DNA of 64,000 bases from NCBI GenBank assembly GCA_034231615.1, contig CM067315.1, forward strand, positions 9,881,915 through 9,945,914, written 5' to 3'. The notes below the pieces were generated by a model. That model was not told the origin of the DNA. It was given only the letters and a program-made list of their open reading frames with translations, and searched no databases. This DNA comes from Meghimatium bilineatum. Its lineage: Eukaryota > Mollusca > Gastropoda > Stylommatophora > Philomycidae. Below are positions 4,201-57,990 of the stretch, piece by piece. The position numbers and the translations under genes are program-made. Numbering within the stretch: position 1 is the stretch's first letter; each line of letters begins with the position of its first letter.

Positions 4201-4365
4201 ATATATTCTTCTTCTTCAGCTTTCATACTCAAACTCCCGCTGGATTTTTCTTGTAACAGGACAATGTTCCTACAAGATTTCTAGTTGAATGTAGTCCAGA
4301 GAATGGAAATACGTTGTGTTGCCGTTTTATTTGCGCCAATGGCCCAACACATCCGTCTTCGGTGG
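4201..4365 (-). mobile_element. SINE A, inserted in the dispersed repeat
   Basis: From TTCTTCTTCTTCAGCTTTC to ACACATCCGTCTTCGGTGG. TACTTTGT flanks it at 4193-4200 and 4366-4373. The surrounding repeat matches 290-535 when the insert is removed. Confidence 0.85.
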
Positions 4366-4373
4366 TACTTTGT

Positions 4374-4560
<187 letters not shown>

Positions 4561-10274: not shown

Positions 10275-13200
10275 CTAGTCTCTGTGACGAGAGATACAGA
10301 GTGTGTATCTGTGACGAGAGATACAGAGTGTGTATCTGTGACGAGAGATACAGAGTGTGTATCTGTGACGGAGATATACAGAGTGAGTATCTGTGACGGA
10401 GATATACAGAGTGTGTATCTGTGACGGAGATATACAGAGTGAGTATCTGTGACGGAGATATACAGAGTGTGTATCTGTGACGGAGATATACAGAGTGCGT
10501 ATCTGTGACGAGAGATACAGAGTGTGTATCTGTGACGGAGATATACAGAGTGAGTATCTGTGACGGAGATATACAGAGTGTGTATCTGTGACGAGAGATA
10601 TACAGAGTGAGTATCTGTGACGGAGATATACAGAGTGAGTATCTGTGACGGAGATATACAGAGTGTGTATCTGTGACGAGAGATATACAGAGTGTGTATC
10701 TGTGACGAGAGATATACAGAGTGCGTATCTGTGACGGAGATATACAGAGTGCGTATCTGTGACGAGAGATATACAGAGTGTGTATCTGTGACGGAGATAT
10801 ACAGAGTGAGTATCTGTGACGGAGATATACAGAGTGTGTATCTGTGACGGAGATATACAGAGTGAGTATCTGTGACGAGAGATATACAGAGTGTGTATCT
10901 GTGACGGAGATATACAGAGTGCGTATCTGTGACGGAGATATACAGAGTGAGTATCTGTGACGAGAGATACAGAGCGAGTATCTGTGACGAGAGATACAGA
11001 GTGTGTATCTGTGACGGAGATATACAGAGTGAGTATCTGTGACGGAGATATACAGAGCGAGTATCTGTGACGGAGATATACAGAGCGAGTATCTGTGACG
11101 AGAGATACAGAGTGTGTATCTGTGACGAGAGATACAGAGTGTGTATCTGTGACGGAGATATACAGAGCGAGTATCTGTGACGGAGATATACAGAGCGAGT
11201 ATCTGTGACGGAGATATACAGAGCGAGTATCTGTGACGGAGATATACAGAGCGAGTATCTGTGACGGAGATATACAGAGCGAGTATCTGTGACGAGAGAT
11301 ACAGAGTGTGTATCTGTGACGAGAGATACAGAGTGTGTATCTGTGACGGAGATATACAGAGTGAGTATCTGTGACGGAGATATACAGAGCGAGGATCTGT
11401 GACGGAGATATACAGAGTGCGTATCTGTGACGAGAGATATACAGAGCGAGTATCTGTGACGGAGATATACAGAGTGCGTATCTGTGACGAGAGATATACA
11501 GAGCGAGTATCTGTGACGGAGATATACAGAGCGAGTATCTGTGACGGAGATATACAGAGTGAGTATCTGTGACGGAGATATACAGAGCGAGGATCTGTGA
11601 CGGAGATATACAGAGTGCGTATCTGTGACGAGAGATATACAGAGCGAGTATCTGTGACGGAGATATACAGAGTGCGTATCTGTGACGAGAGATATACAGA
11701 GCGAGTATCTGTGACGGAGATATACAGAGCGAGTATCTGTGACGGAGATATACAGAGCGAGTATCTGTGACGGAGATATACAGAGCGAGTATCTGTGACG
11801 GAGATATACAGAGCGAGTATCTGTGACGGAGATATACAGAGCGAGTATCTGTGACGAGAGATACAGAGTGCGTATCTGTGGCGGAGATATACAGAGTGCG
11901 TATCTGTGACGGAGATATACAGAGCGAGTATCTGTAACGGAGATATACAGAGTGAGTATCTGTGACGGAGATATACAGAGTGTGTATCTGTGACGGAGAT
12001 ATACAGAGTGTGTATCTGTGACGGAGATATACAGAGTGCGTATCTGTGACGGAGATATACAGAGTGTGTATCTGTGACGGAGATATACAGAGTGTGTATC
12101 TGTGACGGAGATGTACAGAGTGAGGATCTGTGACGGAGATATACAGAGTGCGTATCTGTGACGAGAGATATACAGAGTGCGTATCTGTGACGGAGATATA
12201 CAGAGTGTGTATCTGTGACGGAGATATACAGAGTGAGGATCTGTGACGAGAGATACAGAGCGAGGATCTGTGACGGAGATATACAGAGTGTGTATCTGTG
12301 ACGGAGATATACAGAGTGAGTATCTGTGACGGAGATATACAGAGTGAGTATCTGTGTCGGAGATATACAGAGTGCGTATCTGTGACGAGAGATATACAGA
12401 GTGCGTATCTGTGACGGAGATATACAGAGTGCGTATCTGTGACGGAGATATACAGAGCGAGGATCTGTGACGGAGATATACAGAGTGAGTATCTGTGACG
12501 GAGATATACAGAGTGCGTATCTGTGACGGAGATATACAGAGTGTGTATCTGTGACGGAGATATACAGAGTGCGTATCTGTGACGGAGATATACAGAGTGC
12601 GTATCTGTGACGGAGATATACAGAGTGCGTATCTGTGACGGAGATATACAGAGTGCGTATCTGTGACGGAGATATACAGAGTGCGTATCTGTGACGGAGA
12701 TATACAGAGTGCGTATCTGTGACGGAGATATACAGAGCGAGTATCTGTGACGGAGATATACAGAGTGCGTATCTGTGACGAGAGATACAGAGTGCGTATC
12801 TGTGACGGAGATATACAGAGTGCGTATCTGTGACGAGAGATACAGAGCGAGTATCTGTGACGGAGATATACAGAGTGCGTATCTGTGACGGAGATATACA
12901 GAGTGCGTATCTGTGACGAGAGATATACAGAGCGAGTATCTGTGACGAGAGATACAGAGCGAGTATCTGTGACGGAGATATACAGAGCGAGTATCTGTGA
13001 CGGAGATATACAGAGTGCGTATCTGTGACGAGAGATATACAGAGCGAGTATCTGTGACGAGATATACAGAGCGAGTATCTGTGACGGAGATATACAGAGC
13101 GAGTATCTGTGACGGAGATATACAGAGCGAGGATCTGTGACGGAGATATACAGAGTGCGTATCTGTGACGAGAGATATACAGAGCGAGTATCTGTGACGA

Positions 13201-14792
13201 GAGATACAGAGCGAGTATCTGTGACGGAGATATACAGAGCGAGTATCTGTGACGGAGATATACAGAGCGAGGCTCTGTGACGGAGATATACAGAGCGAGT
13301 ATCTGTGACGGAGATATACAGAGCGAGTATCTGTGACGGAGATATACAGAGCGAGTATCTGTGACGAGAGATACAGAGCGAGGATCTGTGACGGAGATAT
13401 ACAGAGCGAGTATCTGTGACGGAGATATACAGAGCGAGTATCTGTGACGGAGATATACAGAGCGAGTATCTGTGACGGAGATATACAGAGCGAGTATCTG
13501 TGACGGAGATATACAGAGTGAGTATCTGTGACGGAGATATACAGAGTGAGTATCTGTGACGGAGATATACAGAGTGCGTATCTGTGACGGAGATATACAG
13601 AGTGCGTATCTGTGACGGAGATATACAGAGTGCGTATCTGTGACGAGAGATACAGAGCGAGGATCTGTGACGGAGATATACAGAGCGAGTATCTGTGGCG
13701 GAGATATACAGAGTGCGTATCTGTGACGGAGATATACAGAGTGCGTATCTGTGACGGAGATATACAGAGTGCGTATCTGTGACGGAGATATACAGAGCGA
13801 GTATCTGTGACGGAGATATACAGAGTGAGTATCTGTGACGAGAGATACAGAGTGCGTATCTGTGACGGAGATATACAGAGTGAGTATCTGTGGCGGAGAT
13901 ATACAGAGTGAGTATCTGTGACGGAGATATACAGAGTGCGTATCTGTGGCGGAGATATACAGAGTGCGTATCTGTGACGAGAGATACAGAGCGAGGATCT
14001 GTGACGAGAGATATACAGAGTGCGTATCTGTGACGAGAGATACAGAGCGAGGATCTGTGACGGAGATATACAGAGTGCGTATCTGTGACGAGAGATACAG
14101 AGCGAGGATCTGTGACGGAGATGTACAAAGTGCGTATCTGTGGCGGAGATATACAGAGTGCGTATCTGTGACGAGAGATACAGAGCGAGGATCTGTGACG
14201 AGAGATATACAGAGCGAGTATCTGTGACGAGAAATATACAGAGTGCGTATCTGTGACGAGAGATACAGAGCGAGTATCTGTGACGGAGATATACAGAGCG
14301 AGGATCTGTGACGAGAGATATACAGAGTGCGTATCTGTGACGAGAGATACAGAGCGAGTATCTGTGACGGAGATATACAGAGCGAGGATCTGTGACGGAG
14401 ATATACAGAGTGCGTATCTGTGACGAGAGATACTGAGCGAGTATCTGTGACGGAGATATACAGAGCGAGGATCTGTGACGAGAGATATACAGAGCGAGTA
14501 TCTGTGACGAGAGATATACAGAGTGCGTATCTGTTAGGAGAGATACAGAGCGAGGATCTGTGACGGAGATATACAGAGTGCGTATCTGTGACGAGAGATA
14601 CAGAGCGAGGATCTGTGACGGAGATATACAGAGTGCGTATCTGTGACGAGAGATACAGAGCGAGGATCTGTGACGGAGATGTACAGAGTGTGTATCTGTG
14701 ACGAGAGATACAGAGCGAGGATCTGTGACGGAGATGTACAGAGTGTGTATCTGTGACGAGAGATACAGAGCGAGGCTCTGTGACGGAGAGAT
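10275..14792 (+). repeat. 4.5 kb satellite of 27-29-bp units
   Basis: Roughly 160 units of GAGATATACAGAGTGCGTAT plus CTGTGACG. Length variants: 27 bp (CGAGAGATACAGAG) and 29 bp (CGAGAGATATACAG). Sequence variants: GTGTGTATC, GTGAGTATC, GTGCGTATC, GCGAGTATC and GCGAGGATC. GTGTG dominates the left edge and GCGAGGATC the right. The minus strand is open for 1305 codons because the unit has no stop in any of its three minus frames. Not a gene. Confidence 0.98.
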
Positions 14793-14924
14793 AAAGATAC
14801 TCTTTCTAGGTCTTTCTAGGTCACCTAACTAGGATATATTCCTCCTAGCAGAAAGTGAATAGGAGCTGCACAGATAAACAGATCAAATGATCAAATCAAG
14901 TAGAGCATATATACTGGATATGAA

Positions 14925-29485: not shown

Positions 29486-29847
29486 TAATATCCCCAAAGA
29501 GGCGCCCATTTAATGATAAAGTTTTTCGAATAGAAAATAATCGCGAGTGGGGGAGGGGGGCATAACTCTGGCGTGTTGCAGCTTATTGAGAACACACACT
29601 AGTTTGTTTTGTTGTTTTGTTTTGGTTTTTGGTTTTTTTCGGGTTTTTTCGGTTTTTTTCTACAAGTTCTTGTATAGTACAGCTGCTGCCCTGCGAGCCG
29701 ATACATTTTTATCACTCAGTAAGGACCCACGGGGAGGTAGTGAATACGCAGGTGCTTATGGAAATCAGACAACGAATGTGACAGAACTCGGAGAACTTTT
29801 TTTCTGGCACAAATCTTTCACAAATATGTTTACAATCATATCTGCAT

Positions 29848-30010
29848 TTCCGCCGAAGATGGATGTGTCGAACCATTTGCGCAAATAAAACGGAGACACG
29901 AGGCATTTCCATTCTCTGGACTACATCCTGCTGGAAATCTAATAGGATAATGGTCCTGCTACAAGAGAGATCAAGCGGGAGTTTGAAAATGAACGCTAAA
30001 GAAGAAGATG
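29848..30010 (+). mobile_element. SINE A
   Basis: CCGCCGAAGATGGATGTGTC, GCGCAAATAAAACGGAGACA, CCATTCTCTGGACTACATCC, GAGTTTGAAAATGAACGC and a GAAGAAGATGAAG tail. Target duplication unclear. Confidence 0.88.
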
Positions 30011-36114: not shown

Positions 36115-36845
36115 ATGTTTCTTTCACATACCTCTCTCTTCTATCACATACCCCTCTCTTCTATCACATACCCCTCTCTTCTTACATATATACCTTCCTT
36201 CTATCACATACCTCTTTCTTATTTTGCTTACCCCTCTCTTCTTACACATACGCCCCCTTCTCTCACATACGCCTCCTTTCTATCAAATACTCCTCTCTTA
36301 TATCACATATCCCTCTCTTCTTTCATATGCCTCTCTCTTCTATCACATACCCCTCTCTTTTTACACATATACCTCCCATCACATACCCCTCTCTTCTTAC
36401 ACATATACCTCCCTTCTATCACATACCCCTCTCTCCTCACATACTCCTCTCTTATATCACATATTCCTCTCTTCTTTCATATGCCCATCTCTTCTCTCAT
36501 ACCCCCTCTCTTCTCTCACATATCCCTCTCATAACCATCTCTTCTCTCACATACCCCTCTCATACCGATCTCTTCTCTAACATGCCTCTCCCATAAACCT
36601 CTTTTCTCTCACATGCCCCTCTCATAAACCTCTTTTCTCTCACATGCCCCTCTCATAAACCTCTTTTCTCTCACATGCCCCTCTCATAAACCTTTCTCTC
36701 ACATGCCCCTCTCATAAACCTCTTTTCTCTCACATGCCCCTCTCATAAACCTCTTTTCTCTCACATGCCCCTCTCATAAACCTCTTTTCTCTCACATGCC
36801 CCTCTTATAAACCTCTTTTCTCTCATATGCCCCTCTTTATCTTAC
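36115..36845 (+). repeat. Pyrimidine-rich 21-bp and 31-bp arrays
   Basis: TCTATCACATACCCCTCTCT units to about 36580, then eight units of CTCTTTTCTCTCACATGCCC plus CTCATAAAC. Confidence 0.94.
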
Positions 36846-39455: not shown

Positions 39456-39796
39456 TCTTATTCTTATTATAATCTGCAGCATCACGTACATACCTGGACA
39501 AGTTCTAGAGAAACTCAACCAGACAGAAGGACAGACATCGTCACATGACAGCCCCCAGAAATTGGGTCGTTCTTTTAGGTTAGTATGACGATAAAGCTCC
39601 GGTATCTTTTAGTCCTGCTCTGTGGCAGTGGTGCTGAGCGCCTCTGTGACGTCCAAGGTACCGAGCTCGAAAACCGCTACAGGCAACTATGTATTCGGAC
39701 CGTTCAGAAAGCAATGGAACACTTCTGAACGTATTTATGTTTCTTTTAAAAAAAATCACTACAGCCAAAAAATGCCGGGTCCTGAATACACTACAC

Positions 39797-39950
39797 CCCG
39801 CCGAAGACGGATGTGTCGGGCCATTGGCGCAAATAAAACTGCGACACGGCGCATTTCCATTTTCTGGACTACATCCTGCTGGAAATCTAGCAGGACCATG
39901 ATCCAGCTAGATCCAGTTGGAGTTTGAGAATGAACGCAGAAGAAGAAGAA
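39797..39950 (+). mobile_element. SINE A, intact reference copy
   Basis: 154 bp: CCCGCCGAAGACGGATGTGT, GGCGCAAATAAAACTGCGAC, GACTACATCCTGCTGGAAAT, CCAGTTGGAGTTTGAGAATG and ACGCAGAAGAAGAAGAA. GAATACACTACAC at 39784-39796 and 39951-39963. Confidence 0.95.
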
Positions 39951-42173: not shown

Positions 42174-42415
42174 GTCGGATAGTCCAGCAGCCTCAAAAAC
42201 AATAGAACATCATGAAACACGTGTAAATATGGCTGCAACGGAAGTTCCGCCCGCAAAACCAACGAACCAATCAGAGGCTAAACCTGGTTCAGTATATGGT
42301 CAAAAAACCCTGCAGACTGATGGGTCGTTTGCAGTGGGTAATCAAATTTGGGGTCCACCAAGAATTGTTCAGCTAATCAGAGAACAAGGGAAGAGTCTGG
42401 GAATAAGCATTGTGG
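42174..42415 (+). CDS. MPDZ/PATJ: Exon 1 seen: linker and start of PDZ domain, MPDZ/PATJ-like scaffold protein
   Basis: Internal coding exon of a multi-PDZ scaffold protein; relatives (MUPP1/MPDZ, PATJ/INADL) organise tight-junction and polarity complexes at the cell cortex. A pyrimidine-rich tract ending TTCTGCAG precedes the exon, and GTAAG follows it. The frame is open from the first base: one base completes a codon from the previous exon, 80 full codons follow, and one base is left over (phase 1 exit). The N-terminal part is a low-complexity linker rich in Ala, Pro and Lys. The end carries WGPPRIVQLIREQGKSLGIS, which is beta-strand A and the carboxylate-binding loop (SLGI in place of GLGF). 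The Met at 42229 lies in frame but is probably internal, since the frame is open upstream back to the acceptor. The upstream exon was not found. Confidence 0.85.
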
Positions 42416-50376: not shown

Positions 50377-50504
50377 GAGGCAGAGTTGACATGTTTAATG
50401 TGTCACAAGAACACAGTAATGCTGGAATCTTTATTAAGCATGTACTCGCTGACAGTCCCGCAGGGAGAAACGGAACTCTCAAGAAAGGAGACCGCATCCT
50501 TGAG
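50377..50504 (+). CDS. MPDZ/PATJ: Exon 2 seen: core of the PDZ domain
   Basis: The exon starts after ACCACACAG and ends before GTGAGT. Its first two bases complete a Gly codon begun in the previous exon, giving the continuous reading SIVG-GRVDMFNV. 42 full codons follow, with exit in phase 0. It encodes strands B to D and the alpha-A region, including GIFIKHVLADSPAGRNGTLK and GDRILEV. The pattern DSPAG-R-GTLK-GDRILEV is diagnostic of PDZ domains of the MPDZ/PATJ type. Intron 1 upstream is 7961 bp and carries two large tandem arrays. No frameshift or missing core residue is seen. The assignment rests on phase-perfect joining plus the motif, not on a database search. Confidence 0.9.
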
Positions 50505-51800: not shown

Positions 51801-51819
51801 TTTAACGTTTTACGTCTCC

Positions 51820-52020
51820 AGAAAATATCTTGTACATGTCAGTGATGTAATCTGTTCCCAGGTAAACAGCTTCAGAAAATATCTTGTACATGTTAGTAAT
51901 GTCATGTATTCCCAGGTAAACACTTGTACATGTTAGTGATGTAATCTGTTTCCATGTACACGTCAGAAAATATCTTGTACATGTCAGTGATGTCTTCTGT
52001 TCCCAGGTAAACGGATCTGA
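51820..52020 (+). repeat. Copies of the exon 3 acceptor region
   Basis: About 47-70 bp units with AAAATATCTTGTACATGT, GTGATGT and TGTTCCCAG-GTAAAC. Acceptor-like CCCAG/GTAAAC occurs at 51861/51862 and 51915/51916, is lost in a third copy (TTTCCATGTACA, near 51950), and is the real acceptor at 52006/52007. Use of the upstream copies would run into an in-frame TAG before exon 3. Confidence 0.85.
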
Positions 52021-52117
52021 CGTGAGAAATGCCACACACGACGAAGCTGTTGAAGTCATCCGGAACTCGTCATGTCCGATCGCATTCCTTGTACAAAGTC
52101 TTTCTTATTCATCCTGC
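52007..52117 (+). CDS. MPDZ/PATJ: Exon 3 seen: C-terminal part of the PDZ domain
   Basis: 111 bp, exactly 37 codons, phase 0 to phase 0. It begins after TCTGTTCCCAG and ends before GTAAGT. It encodes VNGSDVRNATHDEAVEVIRN followed by a final beta strand with AFLVQSL. The His in THDEAVEVI is at the first position of helix alpha-B, the residue that marks class I PDZ domains (binding C-terminal S/T-x-hydrophobic). Its last codons (LVQSLSYSSC) and the donor site form the unit of the 40-bp array that follows. Copies of its acceptor occur upstream. Only the first donor (52118) preserves frame: the second shifts frame by +1, and reading through to later donors meets TAA in the third unit. Confidence 0.9.
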
Positions 52118-53836
52118 GTAAGTTTTCCTTGTACAAAGTCTTTCCTATTCATCCTGCGTAAGTTTTCCTTGTACAAAGTCTTTCTTGTTCATCCTGCGTA
52201 AGTTTTCCTTGTACAAAGTCTTTCTTATTCATCCTGCGTAAGTTTTCATTGTACAAAGTCTTTCTTATTCATCCTGCGTAAGTTTTCCTTGTACAAAGTC
52301 TTTCTTATTCATCCTGCGTAAGTTTTCCTTGTACAAAGTCTTTCTTATTCATCCTGCGTAAGTTTTCCTTGTACAAAGTCTTTCTTATTCATCTTGCGTA
52401 AGTTTTCCTTGTACAAAGTCTTTCTTATTCATCCTGCGTAAGTTTTCCTTGTACAAAGTCTGTCTTATTCATCCTGCGTAAGTTTTCCTTGTACAAAGTC
52501 TTTCTTATTCATCCTGCGTAAGTTTTCCTTGTACAAAGTCTTTCCTATTCATCCTGCGTAAGTTTTCCTTGTACAAAGTCTTTCTTGTTCATCCTGCGTA
52601 AGTTTTCCTTGTACAAAGTATTTCCTATTCATCCTGCGTAAGTTTTCCTTGTACAAAGTCTGTCCTATTCATCCTGCGTAAGTTTTCATTGTACAAAGTC
52701 TTTCTTGTTCATCCTGCGTAAGTTTTCCTTGTACAAAGTCTTTCTTGTTCATCCTGCGTAAGTTTTCCTTATACAAAGTCTTTCTTGTTCATCCTGCGTA
52801 AGTTTTCCTTGTACAAAGTCTTTCCTATTCATCCTGCGTAAGTTTTCCTTGTACAAAGTCTTTCTTATTCATCCTGCGTAAGTTTTCCTTGTACAAAGTC
52901 TTTCCTATTCATCCTGCGTAAGTTTTCATTGTACAAAGTCTTTCTTGTTCATCCTGCGTAAGTTTTCCTTGTACAAAGTCTTTCCTATTCATCCTGCGTA
53001 AGTTTTCCTTGTACAAAGTCTTTCTTATTCATCCTGCGTAAGTTTTCCTTGTACAAAGTCTTTCTTATTCATCCTGCGTAAGTTTTCCTTGTACAAAGTC
53101 TTTCTTATTCATCCTGCGTAAGTTTTCATTGTACAAAGTCTTTCTTATTCATCCTGCGTAAGTTTTCCTTGTACAAAGTCTTTCTTATTCATCCTGCGTA
53201 AGTTTTCCTTGTACAAAGTCTTTCTTATTCATCCTGCGTAAGTTTTCCTTGTACAAAGTCTTTCTTATTCATCCTGCGTAAGTTTTCCTTGTACAAAGTC
53301 TTTCTTATTCATCCTGCGTAAGTTTTCCTTGTACAAAGTCTTTCTTATTCATCCTGCGTAAGTTTTCCTTGTACAAAGTCTTTCTTATTCATCCTGCGTA
53401 AGTTTTCCTTGTACAAAGTCTTTCCTATTCATCCTGCGTAAGTTTTCCTTGTACAAAGTCTTTCTTGTTCATCCTGCGTAAGTTTTCCTTGTACAAAGTA
53501 TTTCCTATTCATCCTGCGTAAGTTTTCCTTGTACAAAGTCTTTCCTATTCATCCTGCGTAAGTTTTCATTGTACAAAGTCTTTCTTGTTCATCCTGCGTA
53601 AGTTTTCCTTGTACAAAGTCTTTCTTGTTCATCCTGCGTAAGTTTTCCTTATACAAAGTCTTTCTTGTTCATCCTGCGTAAGTTTTCCTTGTACAAAGTC
53701 TTTCCTATTCATCCTGCGTAAGTTTTCCAGGTACAAAGTCTTTCCTATTCATCCTGCGTAAGTTTTCCTTGTACAAAGTCTTTCCTATTCATCCTGCGTA
53801 AGTTTAACTTTCTTATTCATCTTGCGTAGGTATTTA
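52088..53836 (+). repeat. 40-bp minisatellite made from the exon 3 / intron 3 boundary
   Basis: The unit runs CTTGTACAAAGTCTTTCTTA then TTCATCCTGCGTAAGTTTTC. From the true donor at 52118, GCGTAAGT recurs every 40 bp to 53798, which is 43 donor motifs with no indel. Substitutions are few (TTATTC/CTATTC/TTGTTC, CATTGT/CTTGT). The first unit is coding (LVQSLSYSSC). The variant series GTACAAAGTA, AGTTTTCATT and ATACAAAGTC appears at 52611, 52681 and 52771 and again at 53491, 53561 and 53651. The 880-bp offset (22 units) indicates a block duplication. The last unit is degenerate (CTTGCGTAGG). One stray unit lies at 53966-54020 beyond an inserted repeat. Confidence 0.97.
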
Positions 53837-53965
53837 ATGAGTTTGCCTCTCTTGTGGAGAGGTTTGCCCCTTTAAACCAGCAGACAACAAAGTCCACTTA
53901 AGTTATATCAGGACACACTACCATAAAATATTAGAGGTAACAAAGACCCCAAGTAAGTATTAATC
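53837..53965 (+). repeat. Dispersed repeat H
   Basis: Breaks the 40-bp array. Contains TTGCCTCTCTTGTGGAGAGG (a small inverted repeat), an ATCAGGACACACTAC segment and TATTAGAGGTAACAAAG. The same order is seen at 56813-56904 plus 57937-57990, where a LINE interrupts it. Confidence 0.6.
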
Positions 53966-54089
53966 TTGCGTAAGTTTTCCTTGTACAAAGTCTTTCTTGT
54001 TCATCCTTCGTCAGTTTGACTGTTTTTACAGATTACTTCACTGTTGTAAATGTTAGATATTTGTGTAAATTAATGTCATTTTAGTCATT

Positions 54090-55713: not shown

Positions 55714-55821
55714 CCCAAGGATCCTGAATCAATTCCAGGAAAATCTACCCAGCCTGGCAAATCACCAAGTCTTACAGCTCAAAGACCAGCATCAACATCA
55801 CCAGAGCACATACAAAATCAG
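55714..55821 (+). CDS. MPDZ/PATJ: Exon 4 seen: Ser/Pro-rich inter-PDZ linker
   Basis: 108 bp, 36 codons, phase 0 in and out, bounded by AATCGTCCAG and GTAGGG. It encodes a Pro/Ser/Gln-rich linker (PKDPESIPGKSTQPGKSPSL then TAQRPASTSPEHIQNQ) with no domain fold, as expected between PDZ repeats. The phase matches exon 3. The polypyrimidine tract is poor and the 27-bp CTAAT array ends almost at the acceptor. That makes this exon less certain than the PDZ exons, but a clean 108-bp open reading between good splice signals at the right phase is good support. Confidence 0.72.
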
Positions 55822-55949
55822 GTAGGGTTTGATGTTGTAGTAAAGATTCCTTGAGACTTGTGTTTTCTTGCCTGTCTAACATTGTTAACTTGGCGTTTAC
55901 AATGAGTACTTAAAATCATATATCTCGGGTCTCAATTATGTGATGATTC

Positions 55950-56115
55950 TTCTTCTTCTTCAGCATTCATTTTCAAACTCCCGTTGGATCTCTCTTGTAG
56001 CAGGACCATGGTCCTAGTAGATTTCCAGCAGCATGTAGTCCAGAGAATGGAAATACGTTGTGTCGCCGTTTTATTTGCTCCAATGGTCCGACACATCCGT
56101 CTTCGGCGAAATATG
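55950..56115 (-). mobile_element. SINE A, minus strand, with target duplication
   Basis: TTCTTCTTCTTCAGCATTC to TCCGTCTTCGGCGAAATATG. Flanked by ATGTGATGATTC at 55938-55949 and 56116-56127. Lies in the intron after exon 4. Confidence 0.9.
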
Positions 56116-56147
56116 ATGTGATGATTCATCGTGTGACATATTCTTTC

Positions 56148-56305
56148 GGGGGCAGCGTAGCGCACTGGCTTAGCATATGAGTGGTCCTAGGTTCATTCCC
56201 CAGTTGAGGCTCACGGGTCGACCCATCCTTAAATGGGTATCGGATTAATCTGGGAAGTAAAGACTGCGAGGGAGAGGAGATAGTCACCGCCCTCATATAG
56301 CAAAA
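56148..56305 (+). mobile_element. tRNA-headed SINE D, shortened
   Basis: GGGGGCAGCGTAGCGCACTGG (A-box region with a short deletion), GGTCCTAGGTTCATTCCCC (B-box region), then GGGTCGACCCATCCTTAAAT, GGATTAATCTGGGAAGTAAA and TCACCGCCCTCATATAGC. Closely matches the 38.5 kb copy. Confidence 0.8.
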
Positions 56306-56812: not shown

Positions 56813-57990
56813 CGGTTTACCTCTTCTTTTGAGAGGCACGCAGCTTTCAACCAGAGGGCAGTGTCCAAGTAGGCTAAATCAGGACGTACTATCAAAAAGT
56901 ATTATATCTATCTATACGATGTGGCCCTTGTTTGCTTTGCGGCGCCAGGGGTGGAAGAGTTCTCTGGAGATGGCCTTCTTGTGCGCTGTTTGTAAGCTTG
57001 TTCCTGTGGCTTCTTTGATTTCTTTGATCCATCTTTCATATGGTCTGCCTCTGGTTTTATAGCCGTTATGTCTATGTGTCATGGCCATTTGTGGCATGAT
57101 ATATGTTGGTATTATGGAAGCGTGTGAAAACCACTTGATCTGTTGTTTTTTTATGTGTTCCAATACTGGTATTGTTTCGGTTATCTGTCTGATGTTATCG
57201 TTTCTAATTCTATCTCTTAATGACACTCCGAGTATTCTTCGTAGACATGTCATTTCTGCTGTCACTATTTTCTTTTGTCTTGTGCTGTCATTGTCCAGGG
57301 TTGGCACTGGTAGCACAATGATGGAATAATAATAGTCTTGTATAATGCAACTTTAGTGTCTATGTTTACATTTTTGTTCTTGAAATACGTGCCATCTGTC
57401 CTAGGATCTGGTATGTTCTGTTGCATCTATTTAGTATCTCTTTACTATTTTTCCCTTCACTCGATATAATGTTTCCTAAGTAAGTGAACTCCTTTACCTG
57501 TTTACGGTGTTTATCATCGATGGAGATATTGATATTTCTTTGATTCTTGAAGAATGATATTGCCATTATTTCGGTCTTTTCAATATTAATCTTCATGTTG
57601 AATTTTTGACATGTTATGTTGAGTCTGTTCATATGTTATTGCAAGTGTTCTTCTGAGTACTTGCTCGTCTGCAAAGAGTAGTTTGTTCAATTTGTCTTTT
57701 ATGTTATCTTTTTCGTTGGTACTTGTTACGTTAAAGATGTGGTCGATATATGTTAAAAAAAAGTAGAGGGGATAGGACACACCCCTGTGAATTTGGAACT
57801 TAGACACTCCTGCATTTGTTCTTACTTCACATTGGCTATTAGCATAAATGCCCTTGCATATATTGATTAAATGTTCTGGTACTCTGTATATTGATAGTGT
57901 TTTCCATAGTTGTTGTCTGTCTACTCTGTCGAAAGCCTATCAAAAAGTATTAGAGGTAACAAAGCCTCTTAACATTAGTTAAATCATTCC
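56813..57990 (+). repeat. Repeat H, interrupted by LINE G
   Basis: Left part 56813-56904 (TTTACCTCTTCTTTTGAGAG, AAATCAGGACGTACTAT) and right part 57937-57990 (AGTATTAGAGGTAACAAAGC) match the copy at 53.84 kb. Confidence 0.6.
56905..57936 (-). mobile_element. LINE family G, 5'-truncated, 1032 bp, with 16-bp target duplication
   Basis: On the minus strand the element starts inside the reverse transcriptase at AFDRVDRQQLW. It continues through KLLFADEQVL (canonical FADD altered to FADE), FTYLGNIIS and the C-terminal MTCLRRILGVSLRDRIRNDN. It ends ACACAGCGTATAG-type with a (GATA)-like tail. CTATCAAAAAGTATTA is repeated at 56889-56904 and 57937-57952. Frames shift at several places and the catalytic Asp is changed, so it is dead. 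The host site is repeat H, which reads continuously if the insert is removed. Confidence 0.95.

What the first reader, a model, noticed from the sequence alone, without database searches (positions are those of the whole stretch)
52007..53836. A 5' splice site and the end of its exon amplified 43 times
The last 30 coding bases of exon 3 plus the donor GTAAGT form a 40-bp unit repeated without an indel from 52118 to 53798. The spliceosome is offered 43 equal donors. By reading, only the first keeps the frame: donor 2 shifts by 40 nt, and extension to donor 4 and beyond crosses TAA in the third unit. Either the first donor is strongly preferred, or the gene makes many nonsense isoforms, or the array acts as a splice-site sink. 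This is the most unusual structure in the window.
Basis: partly seen in the sequence, partly recalled or inferred. Interest (0 to 1): 0.85.

Follow-up and report, generated by a model that had tools for sequence, protein, structure and literature searches.

The report
Minisatellite spanning an exon-intron boundary
A short piece of DNA covering the end of one exon and its splice signal has been copied 43 times in a row in an animal gene whose genome is rich in such repeats; the cell probably just uses the first, ancestral splice signal and cuts the rest out with the intron, as has been described in lancelets.

Summary
In detail: 43 indel-free 40-bp units (33 exonic + 7 intronic bases) lie at 52085-53804, and all 43 carry GTAAGT. 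The gene is an MPDZ-like multi-PDZ gene.

A paralogous gene on contig C19 aligns without gaps across the same 111-nt exon. It has one donor, exactly where unit 1's exon part ends, and no array. So the first donor is ancestral and the array arose later, in this copy.

The same gene holds two more donor-spanning arrays (16 and 9 junction copies, counting the exon's own); their C19 counterparts also have a single donor at the unit-1 position.

Minisatellites are dense here: 24-26% of random positions have a local copy, against 3 of 45 assigned donors (within this gene 3 of 21, not different from background). Donor-consensus triplets are not enriched genome-wide over a backwards control. This looks like indiscriminate minisatellite growth that sometimes engulfs a junction.

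Lancelet 'mirages' are the same kind and are reported to splice normally (passages). Most likely donor 1 is used and donors 2-43 leave with the intron. No RNA was available.

The parts
52007..52117 (+). Coding exon (37 codons, phase 0), second half of a PDZ domain (VNGSDVRNATHDEAVEVIRNSSCPIAFLVQSLSYSSC)
   Evidence: gap-free alignment to the paralogous exon L033:5216-5326
52085..53804 (+). 43 tandem units of 40 bp: last 33 bases of the exon + GTAAGTT
52118..52123 (+). First donor GTAAGT: the ancestral and inferred functional 5' splice site
   Evidence: same position and phase as the single donor of the C19 paralogue; only donor that keeps the frame into the next exon
52525..53724 (+). Higher-order duplication: units 12-19 recur, with one difference, as units 34-41 (offset 22 units, 880 bp)
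   Evidence: unit table; at lag 22, 14 of 21 unit pairs identical, mean difference 0.43 against 1.24-1.80 at the other 34 lags tested
53805..54030 (+). Degenerate copies of the exon end and donor downstream of the array
51819..52012 (+). Acceptor of the same exon also duplicated upstream (imperfect copies of TTCCCAG|GTAAACA)
   Evidence: TRF rows; one copy at 20 of 25 or better; sequence
55714..55821 (+). Next coding exon (36 codons, phase 0) that donor 1 would join
   Evidence: likely counterpart on C19 of 34 codons ending in CAG|GTAATT, read by eye from the sequence
50377..50504 (+). Preceding PDZ exon
42340..42415 (+). 3' part of the PDZ exon before that; the start given is only where the aligned coding part begins (exon start not assigned)
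   Evidence: 84.6% identical at protein level to L033:1435-1512

Best explanation
It is a minisatellite seeded by a tandem duplication across the 5' splice site of one coding exon of an MPDZ/MUPP1-like multi-PDZ gene. It grew to 43 units in this gene copy, after the split from the copy on contig C19 (shown by comparison with that copy). Growth included at least one large step, seen as a 22-unit offset duplication (shown). The genome is rich in minisatellites, and now and then one starts on a junction; this gene has two more donors like it (shown). Mechanism (inferred): the spliceosome uses the first unit's donor, the ancestral one next to the rest of the exon, by exon definition and because it is transcribed first. 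The other 42 donors are removed within the roughly 3.6-kb intron. Occasional use of a later donor would shift the frame or meet TAA and be lost to nonsense-mediated decay.
For: Array geometry. Single donor at the unit-1 position and no array in the C19 paralogues of all three exons: (scanned downstream for two of them; by eye for L056). Only donor 1 gives an in-frame product; the same for the later donors tested in the two other arrays (4 and 8). Minisatellite density: 30% of the window by TRF; 2-69% (median 15%) of nine 10-kb stretches picked by round coordinates on other contigs; 243-256 of 1000 random positions in the gene region have a nearby copy. No donor enrichment in arrays genome-wide: 1376+1847 against 1784+1944 backwards. 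C18 and C19 exons differ far more at synonymous than at amino-acid sites (230 codons of six exon pairs, pN 0.107, pS 0.80). Lancelet precedents with normal splicing: (passages).
Against: No RNA evidence. General splicing knowledge (recalled) says that of two equal donors the intron-proximal one often wins, which would favour the last unit. The purifying constraint is mostly older than the array, so it does not show that the gene is still spliced well. All three boundary arrays found sit in one of two paralogues, which could mean relaxed selection on that copy (3 of 21 donors here against 0 of 24 elsewhere, Fisher p = 0.09; without the given case 2 of 20, p = 0.20). Within this gene donors are not hit less often than random positions (3 of 21 against 25.6%, p = 0.18), so selection against boundary arrays is not shown there.
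Confidence: 0.75

Rival explanations
1. The array damages splicing: downstream donors are used often, much of the mRNA is nonsense, and the copy is drifting towards loss while the C19 copy carries the function.
For: The three boundary arrays found lie in the C18 copy; 0 of 24 other donors had one. Donors 2-43 do not keep the frame or meet a stop (donors 2-6, 42 and 43 were printed). No erosion of decoy donors in this array: 43 of 43 keep GTAAGT.
Against: The PDZ exons of the C18 gene that were examined are open, over 164 kb, and six of them are conserved against C19. Lancelet genes with such arrays are reported to splice normally (passages). In the second array 3 of 16 junction copies have lost the GT.
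Confidence: 0.13
2. A regulated splice-site sink: the donor array titrates U1 or tunes how much productive mRNA is made, with array length as the dial.
For: 43 donors with identical GTAAGTT in the sense orientation. RNA of window 52061-52280 folds better than shuffles (z -3.1; 1 of 200 shuffles as good), with GUAAG pairing in a local hairpin and UUGUACAA pairing between units.
Against: Absent from the paralogue. Donor motifs are not enriched in arrays genome-wide. Donors are not over-represented in arrays (3 of 45; 3 of 21 in this gene; against 24-26% of random positions). Zero variants in the donor part is within chance: 9 distinct variants, all outside 7 of 40 positions, chance about 0.18 (own arithmetic).
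Confidence: 0.05
3. Assembly artefact: the real locus has one or a few units.
For: One assembly only; reads were not available.
Against: 11 distinct unit types and a 22-unit higher-order pattern; arrays of other units elsewhere in the window and genome; degenerate copies beyond the array.
Confidence: 0.05

Closest known systems
Lancelet 'mirages' (minisatellites over exon-intron boundaries in Adh3, globin, troponin C; similar repeats in PGBD5)
   Same: Tandem units contain an exon edge, the splice signal and some intron; donor or acceptor side; reported not to disturb regular splicing (passages read in PMC3087553 and PMC3902484).
   Different: Probably another animal: G000 is 1.61 Gb in 32 contigs, and lancelet genomes are far smaller (recalled). 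43 units of one donor, against 6 and 3 units in the two haplotypes of the globin example. Three donor arrays in one gene, each checked against a paralogue without the array. Splicing not tested here.
Internal tandem repeats at exon-intron boundaries of human segmentally duplicated genes
   Same: Minisatellite units (about 30 bp on average) at exon edges of duplicated genes (passages in PMC2812944).
   Different: There about 4 units on average, and changed introns with transcript evidence; here 43 units and no transcript data.
Intron gain by tandem duplication of AG/GT proto-splice sites (Rogers-type model)
   Same: Tandem copying of a splice signal (cited in PMC3087553, passage).
   Different: No new intron is implied here; the ancestral exon end is kept.

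Membership tests
Boundary-spanning minisatellite ('mirage' type) | Tandem array whose unit holds the end of an exon, the splice signal and intron | tested here: met
Boundary-spanning minisatellite ('mirage' type) | Array derived from a pre-existing single junction | tested here: met
   single donor at the same place in the C19 paralogue; the same for two more arrays
Boundary-spanning minisatellite ('mirage' type) | Length instability between haplotypes or individuals | not testable with these tools
   only one assembly; a 22-unit offset duplication shows past length change
Boundary-spanning minisatellite ('mirage' type) | Regular splicing undisturbed | not testable with these tools
   no RNA; donor 1 is the only in-frame donor
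Lancelet mirages as a taxon-specific set | Genome is a lancelet's | tested here: inconclusive
   no taxon call was possible; 1.61 Gb in 32 contigs and PDZ genes in apparent pairs argue against it, together with recalled lancelet genome sizes
MPDZ/MUPP1-like multi-PDZ gene | Many PDZ domains in one gene, with this domain most like an MPDZ domain | tested here: met
   20 PDZ hits (E < 1) over 164 kb on one strand; PDB chain 2fcf (Multiple PDZ domain protein) E 5.8e-22; Pfam PDZ E 5.9e-20. The top row was DLG4 (E 1.3e-24 for the whole chain, three matched domains shown); MPDZ rather than the related InaD-like gene is not settled, nor that all 20 hits belong to one transcript.

The most novel reading that the evidence does not exclude
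The locus is a natural experiment in which the spliceosome picks the first of 43 identical donors almost perfectly. Position alone (exon definition or order of transcription) would then settle 5' splice-site choice, contrary to the intron-proximal preference of duplicated sites (recalled). Array growth at donors would be a recurrent, tolerated mutation class in minisatellite-rich genomes.
Probability: 0.35. Interest if true: 0.65.

Novelty: new member of a known kind. Interest (0 to 1): 0.42.

Why it matters
Three separately born donor arrays in one gene, each with a paralogous exon that keeps the single ancestral donor, form a ready-made natural test of how the spliceosome chooses among identical 5' splice sites. 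They also suggest that boundary-spanning minisatellites are not a lancelet peculiarity. The controls caution against reading function into them: about a quarter of positions around this gene lie next to a local tandem copy, and donors are hit no more often than that.

Tried and rejected
Sink or regulatory array: rejected as the main reading because the array is absent from the C19 paralogue and donor motifs are not enriched in arrays genome-wide. Caveat: one search counts overlapping matches and uses AGGTAAGT, which this array (TGCGTAAGT) does not match.

Coding array: rejected; the in-frame TAA at 52199 stops the frame that enters the array, and no ORF of 60 aa or more is listed between 52202 and 54068 on either strand.

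RNA family: no Rfam match in the window at gathering scores.

RNA structure: z -3.1 for window 52061-52280. A palindrome TTGTACAA is in 40 of 43 units, and an exon-end CUUAU can pair with the donor GUAAG. It treats the units alike, so it does not explain the choice of donor 1; kept as a side observation.

Selection on donors inside the array: 0 of 9 distinct variants fall in the 7 donor bases, chance about 0.18; not significant.

A GT-anchored control: of + strand GTAAG/GTGAG sites in the 164 kb that are neither assigned donors nor in this array, 113 of 250 have a copy within 3 kb, more than random positions; these include sites in the gene's other arrays.

Species: not established. Size, contig lengths seen (18 contigs of 26-136 Mb, two small ones) and apparent gene pairs resemble stylommatophoran land snails and slugs, for which a genome duplication at about 93-109 Mya is reported (passages of PMC9392753 and PMC12407731). 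A small contig hoped to be mitochondrial showed no tRNA and no such genes in the part fetched.

Papers on competition between equal donors: two searches and passages of two papers gave nothing decisive. The intron-proximal preference is recalled.

Failed or unanswered: the first DNA search was busy and answered; the PDZ-family search was busy and answered; the search for the third array's exon was busy and answered. A backwards-pattern search and a 40-bp-spaced GTAAGT search did not complete.

Full report
What is there. The 40-bp array at 52085-53804 is present in this assembly: 43 units, no indel, 37 mismatches in 1720 bases, GTAAGTT unchanged in every unit. Each unit is the last 33 bases of a coding exon followed by GTAAGTT. 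The exon (52007-52117, 37 codons) is the second half of a PDZ domain. With its neighbours it matches Pfam PDZ at 5.9e-20, and MPDZ in the PDB at 5.8e-22 with the alignment running through ...FLVQSL, so the first unit is partly conserved coding sequence. The gene goes on far beyond the window: a lead-finding profile, built mostly from recalled PDZ sequences, found 20 PDZ hits at E < 1, all on the + strand, over 164 kb of contig C18.

Which donor is ancestral. A DNA search found a similar exon on contig C19. The fetched stretch (L033) carries a paralogous gene: its exon aligns without gaps over all 111 bases, ends at the same codon, has one donor (TGT|GTAAGT), and shows no copy of the exon end in the next 1000 bases. 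The array is therefore derived, and the donor of unit 1 is the ancestral one. The following exon is phase 0 here (108 nt), and a likely counterpart on C19 of 34 codons can be read by eye, which again fits only donor 1.

It is not alone. In the same gene, exon o (regional 143207-143281; add 60000 to window coordinates to get regional ones) ends in an array of 16 copies of 47 bp whose unit contains ...GACAAG|GTATTG; 3 of the 16 have lost the GT. Exon f (regional 36299-36459) is followed by 8 more copies of ...CACTATAG|GTAAGC or variants of it by pattern; the word scan counted 7. Their C19 counterparts (L055, L056) end at the homologous base with a single donor and no array in the short stretches fetched. 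The acceptor of the finding's own exon is also duplicated imperfectly upstream.

How common. I assigned donors by hand from homology and GT, without RNA: 21 in this gene (19 PDZ exons plus two neighbouring exons) and 24 elsewhere (5 in L033, one each in L054 and L055, and 17 of the 20 loci; L034, L037 and L050 were dropped because no donor could be assigned; L056 was read by eye, not scanned). Tandem copies were found at 3 of 21 and 0 of 24 donors, and at 1 of 19 acceptors (exons i and n had no acceptor assigned). Flanks scanned were 3 kb in this gene but 1 kb for 4 and 146-347 bases for 20 of the 24 elsewhere, and thresholds were 20 of 25 and 19 of 25. The gene was chosen because of the finding, so 3 of 21 is biased upwards. 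Of random positions in the 164-kb region, 243 of 1000 have a copy within 300 bases and 256 of 1000 within 3 kb (an earlier run gave 494 of 2000 within 1 kb). Pooled, donors are hit less often than that (3 of 45, binomial p = 0.002 against 24.3%), but the background comes from this region only, and within this gene the difference is not significant (3 of 21, p = 0.18). Non-donor GTAAG/GTGAG sites of the region have a copy in 113 of 250 cases. By TRF (period 7 or more), 30% of the window is tandem repeat. Nine 10-kb stretches picked by round coordinates on other contigs hold 2-69%, median 15%; three further stretches were picked because one search had matches there (13-30%), and two come from small contigs (11%, and 0% in one that reads largely N). 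Genome-wide, triplets of AGGTAAGT spaced as in arrays number 1376+1847, against 1784+1944 for the pattern read backwards, so there is no sign that donors are amplified preferentially. These counts overlap within arrays and are only a coarse control.

How it works. Shown: later donors cannot give a normal product. Donor 2 leads to a stop in the next exon; donor 3 shifts the frame but stays open through that exon; donors 4 and beyond meet TAA at 52199 (4, 5, 6, 42, 43 printed). In the other two arrays every later donor tested (4 and 8) meets a stop. The array grew partly by a step offset by 22 units: at lag 22, 14 of 21 unit pairs are identical. Unit divergence (2.2% from consensus) is small against the C18-C19 divergence (pS 0.80, pN 0.107 over 230 codons), so the array is young unless homogenised. 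Inferred: donor 1 is used, because it lies next to the body of the exon and is transcribed first, and the others leave with the intron. The purifying constraint over 230 codons fits a working gene but mostly predates the array.

Comparison. Lancelet 'mirages' are the same kind of structure. [quoted passage not shown] The PGBD5 paper lists Adh and troponin C cases that do not make aberrant mRNAs and argues the same for PGBD5 (passages read). Human segmental duplications show boundary repeats that can alter splicing (passages). What differs here is the number of units, three donor arrays in one gene with array-free paralogues as controls, and a genome that does not look like a lancelet's. Searches for further reports showed no boundary array of this size in the titles and abstract openings listed; most subscription papers are not in that library.

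Verdict. The reading of an exceptional splice-site sink is not supported; a tolerated boundary-spanning minisatellite with the first donor in use is the best explanation, pending cDNA.

Noticed in passing
10277-14797: A 4.5-kb minisatellite (28 bp x about 162) is open for most of its length in all three frames of the - strand (ORFs of 1440, 1529 and 1517 aa), probably a by-product of the unit length and of a unit without stops on that strand.
   Followed up: no
G000 contigs C18/C19, C6/C20, C8/C21, C11/C13, C2/C4, C1/C2: Very similar PDZ exons occur in pairs on different contigs, which suggests an old whole-genome or large-scale duplication.
   Followed up: partly
L015:4505 (regional 34505): A PDZ exon of this gene appears to end in a GC donor (CTTGAG|GCGAGT).
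   Followed up: no
window, several places, e.g. 4285-4420, 29712-29950, 39759-39906, 55932-56186: A dispersed repeat whose translation reads about '[24 protein letters not shown]' recurs on both strands.
   Followed up: no
57586-57936 (-): Fragment resembling a reverse transcriptase of a LINE-type element (by eye, not searched).
   Followed up: no
L033:4940-8683: Introns of the C19 paralogue hold minisatellites with other units than those of the window's introns around the corresponding exons, so arrays turn over between paralogues.
   Followed up: partly
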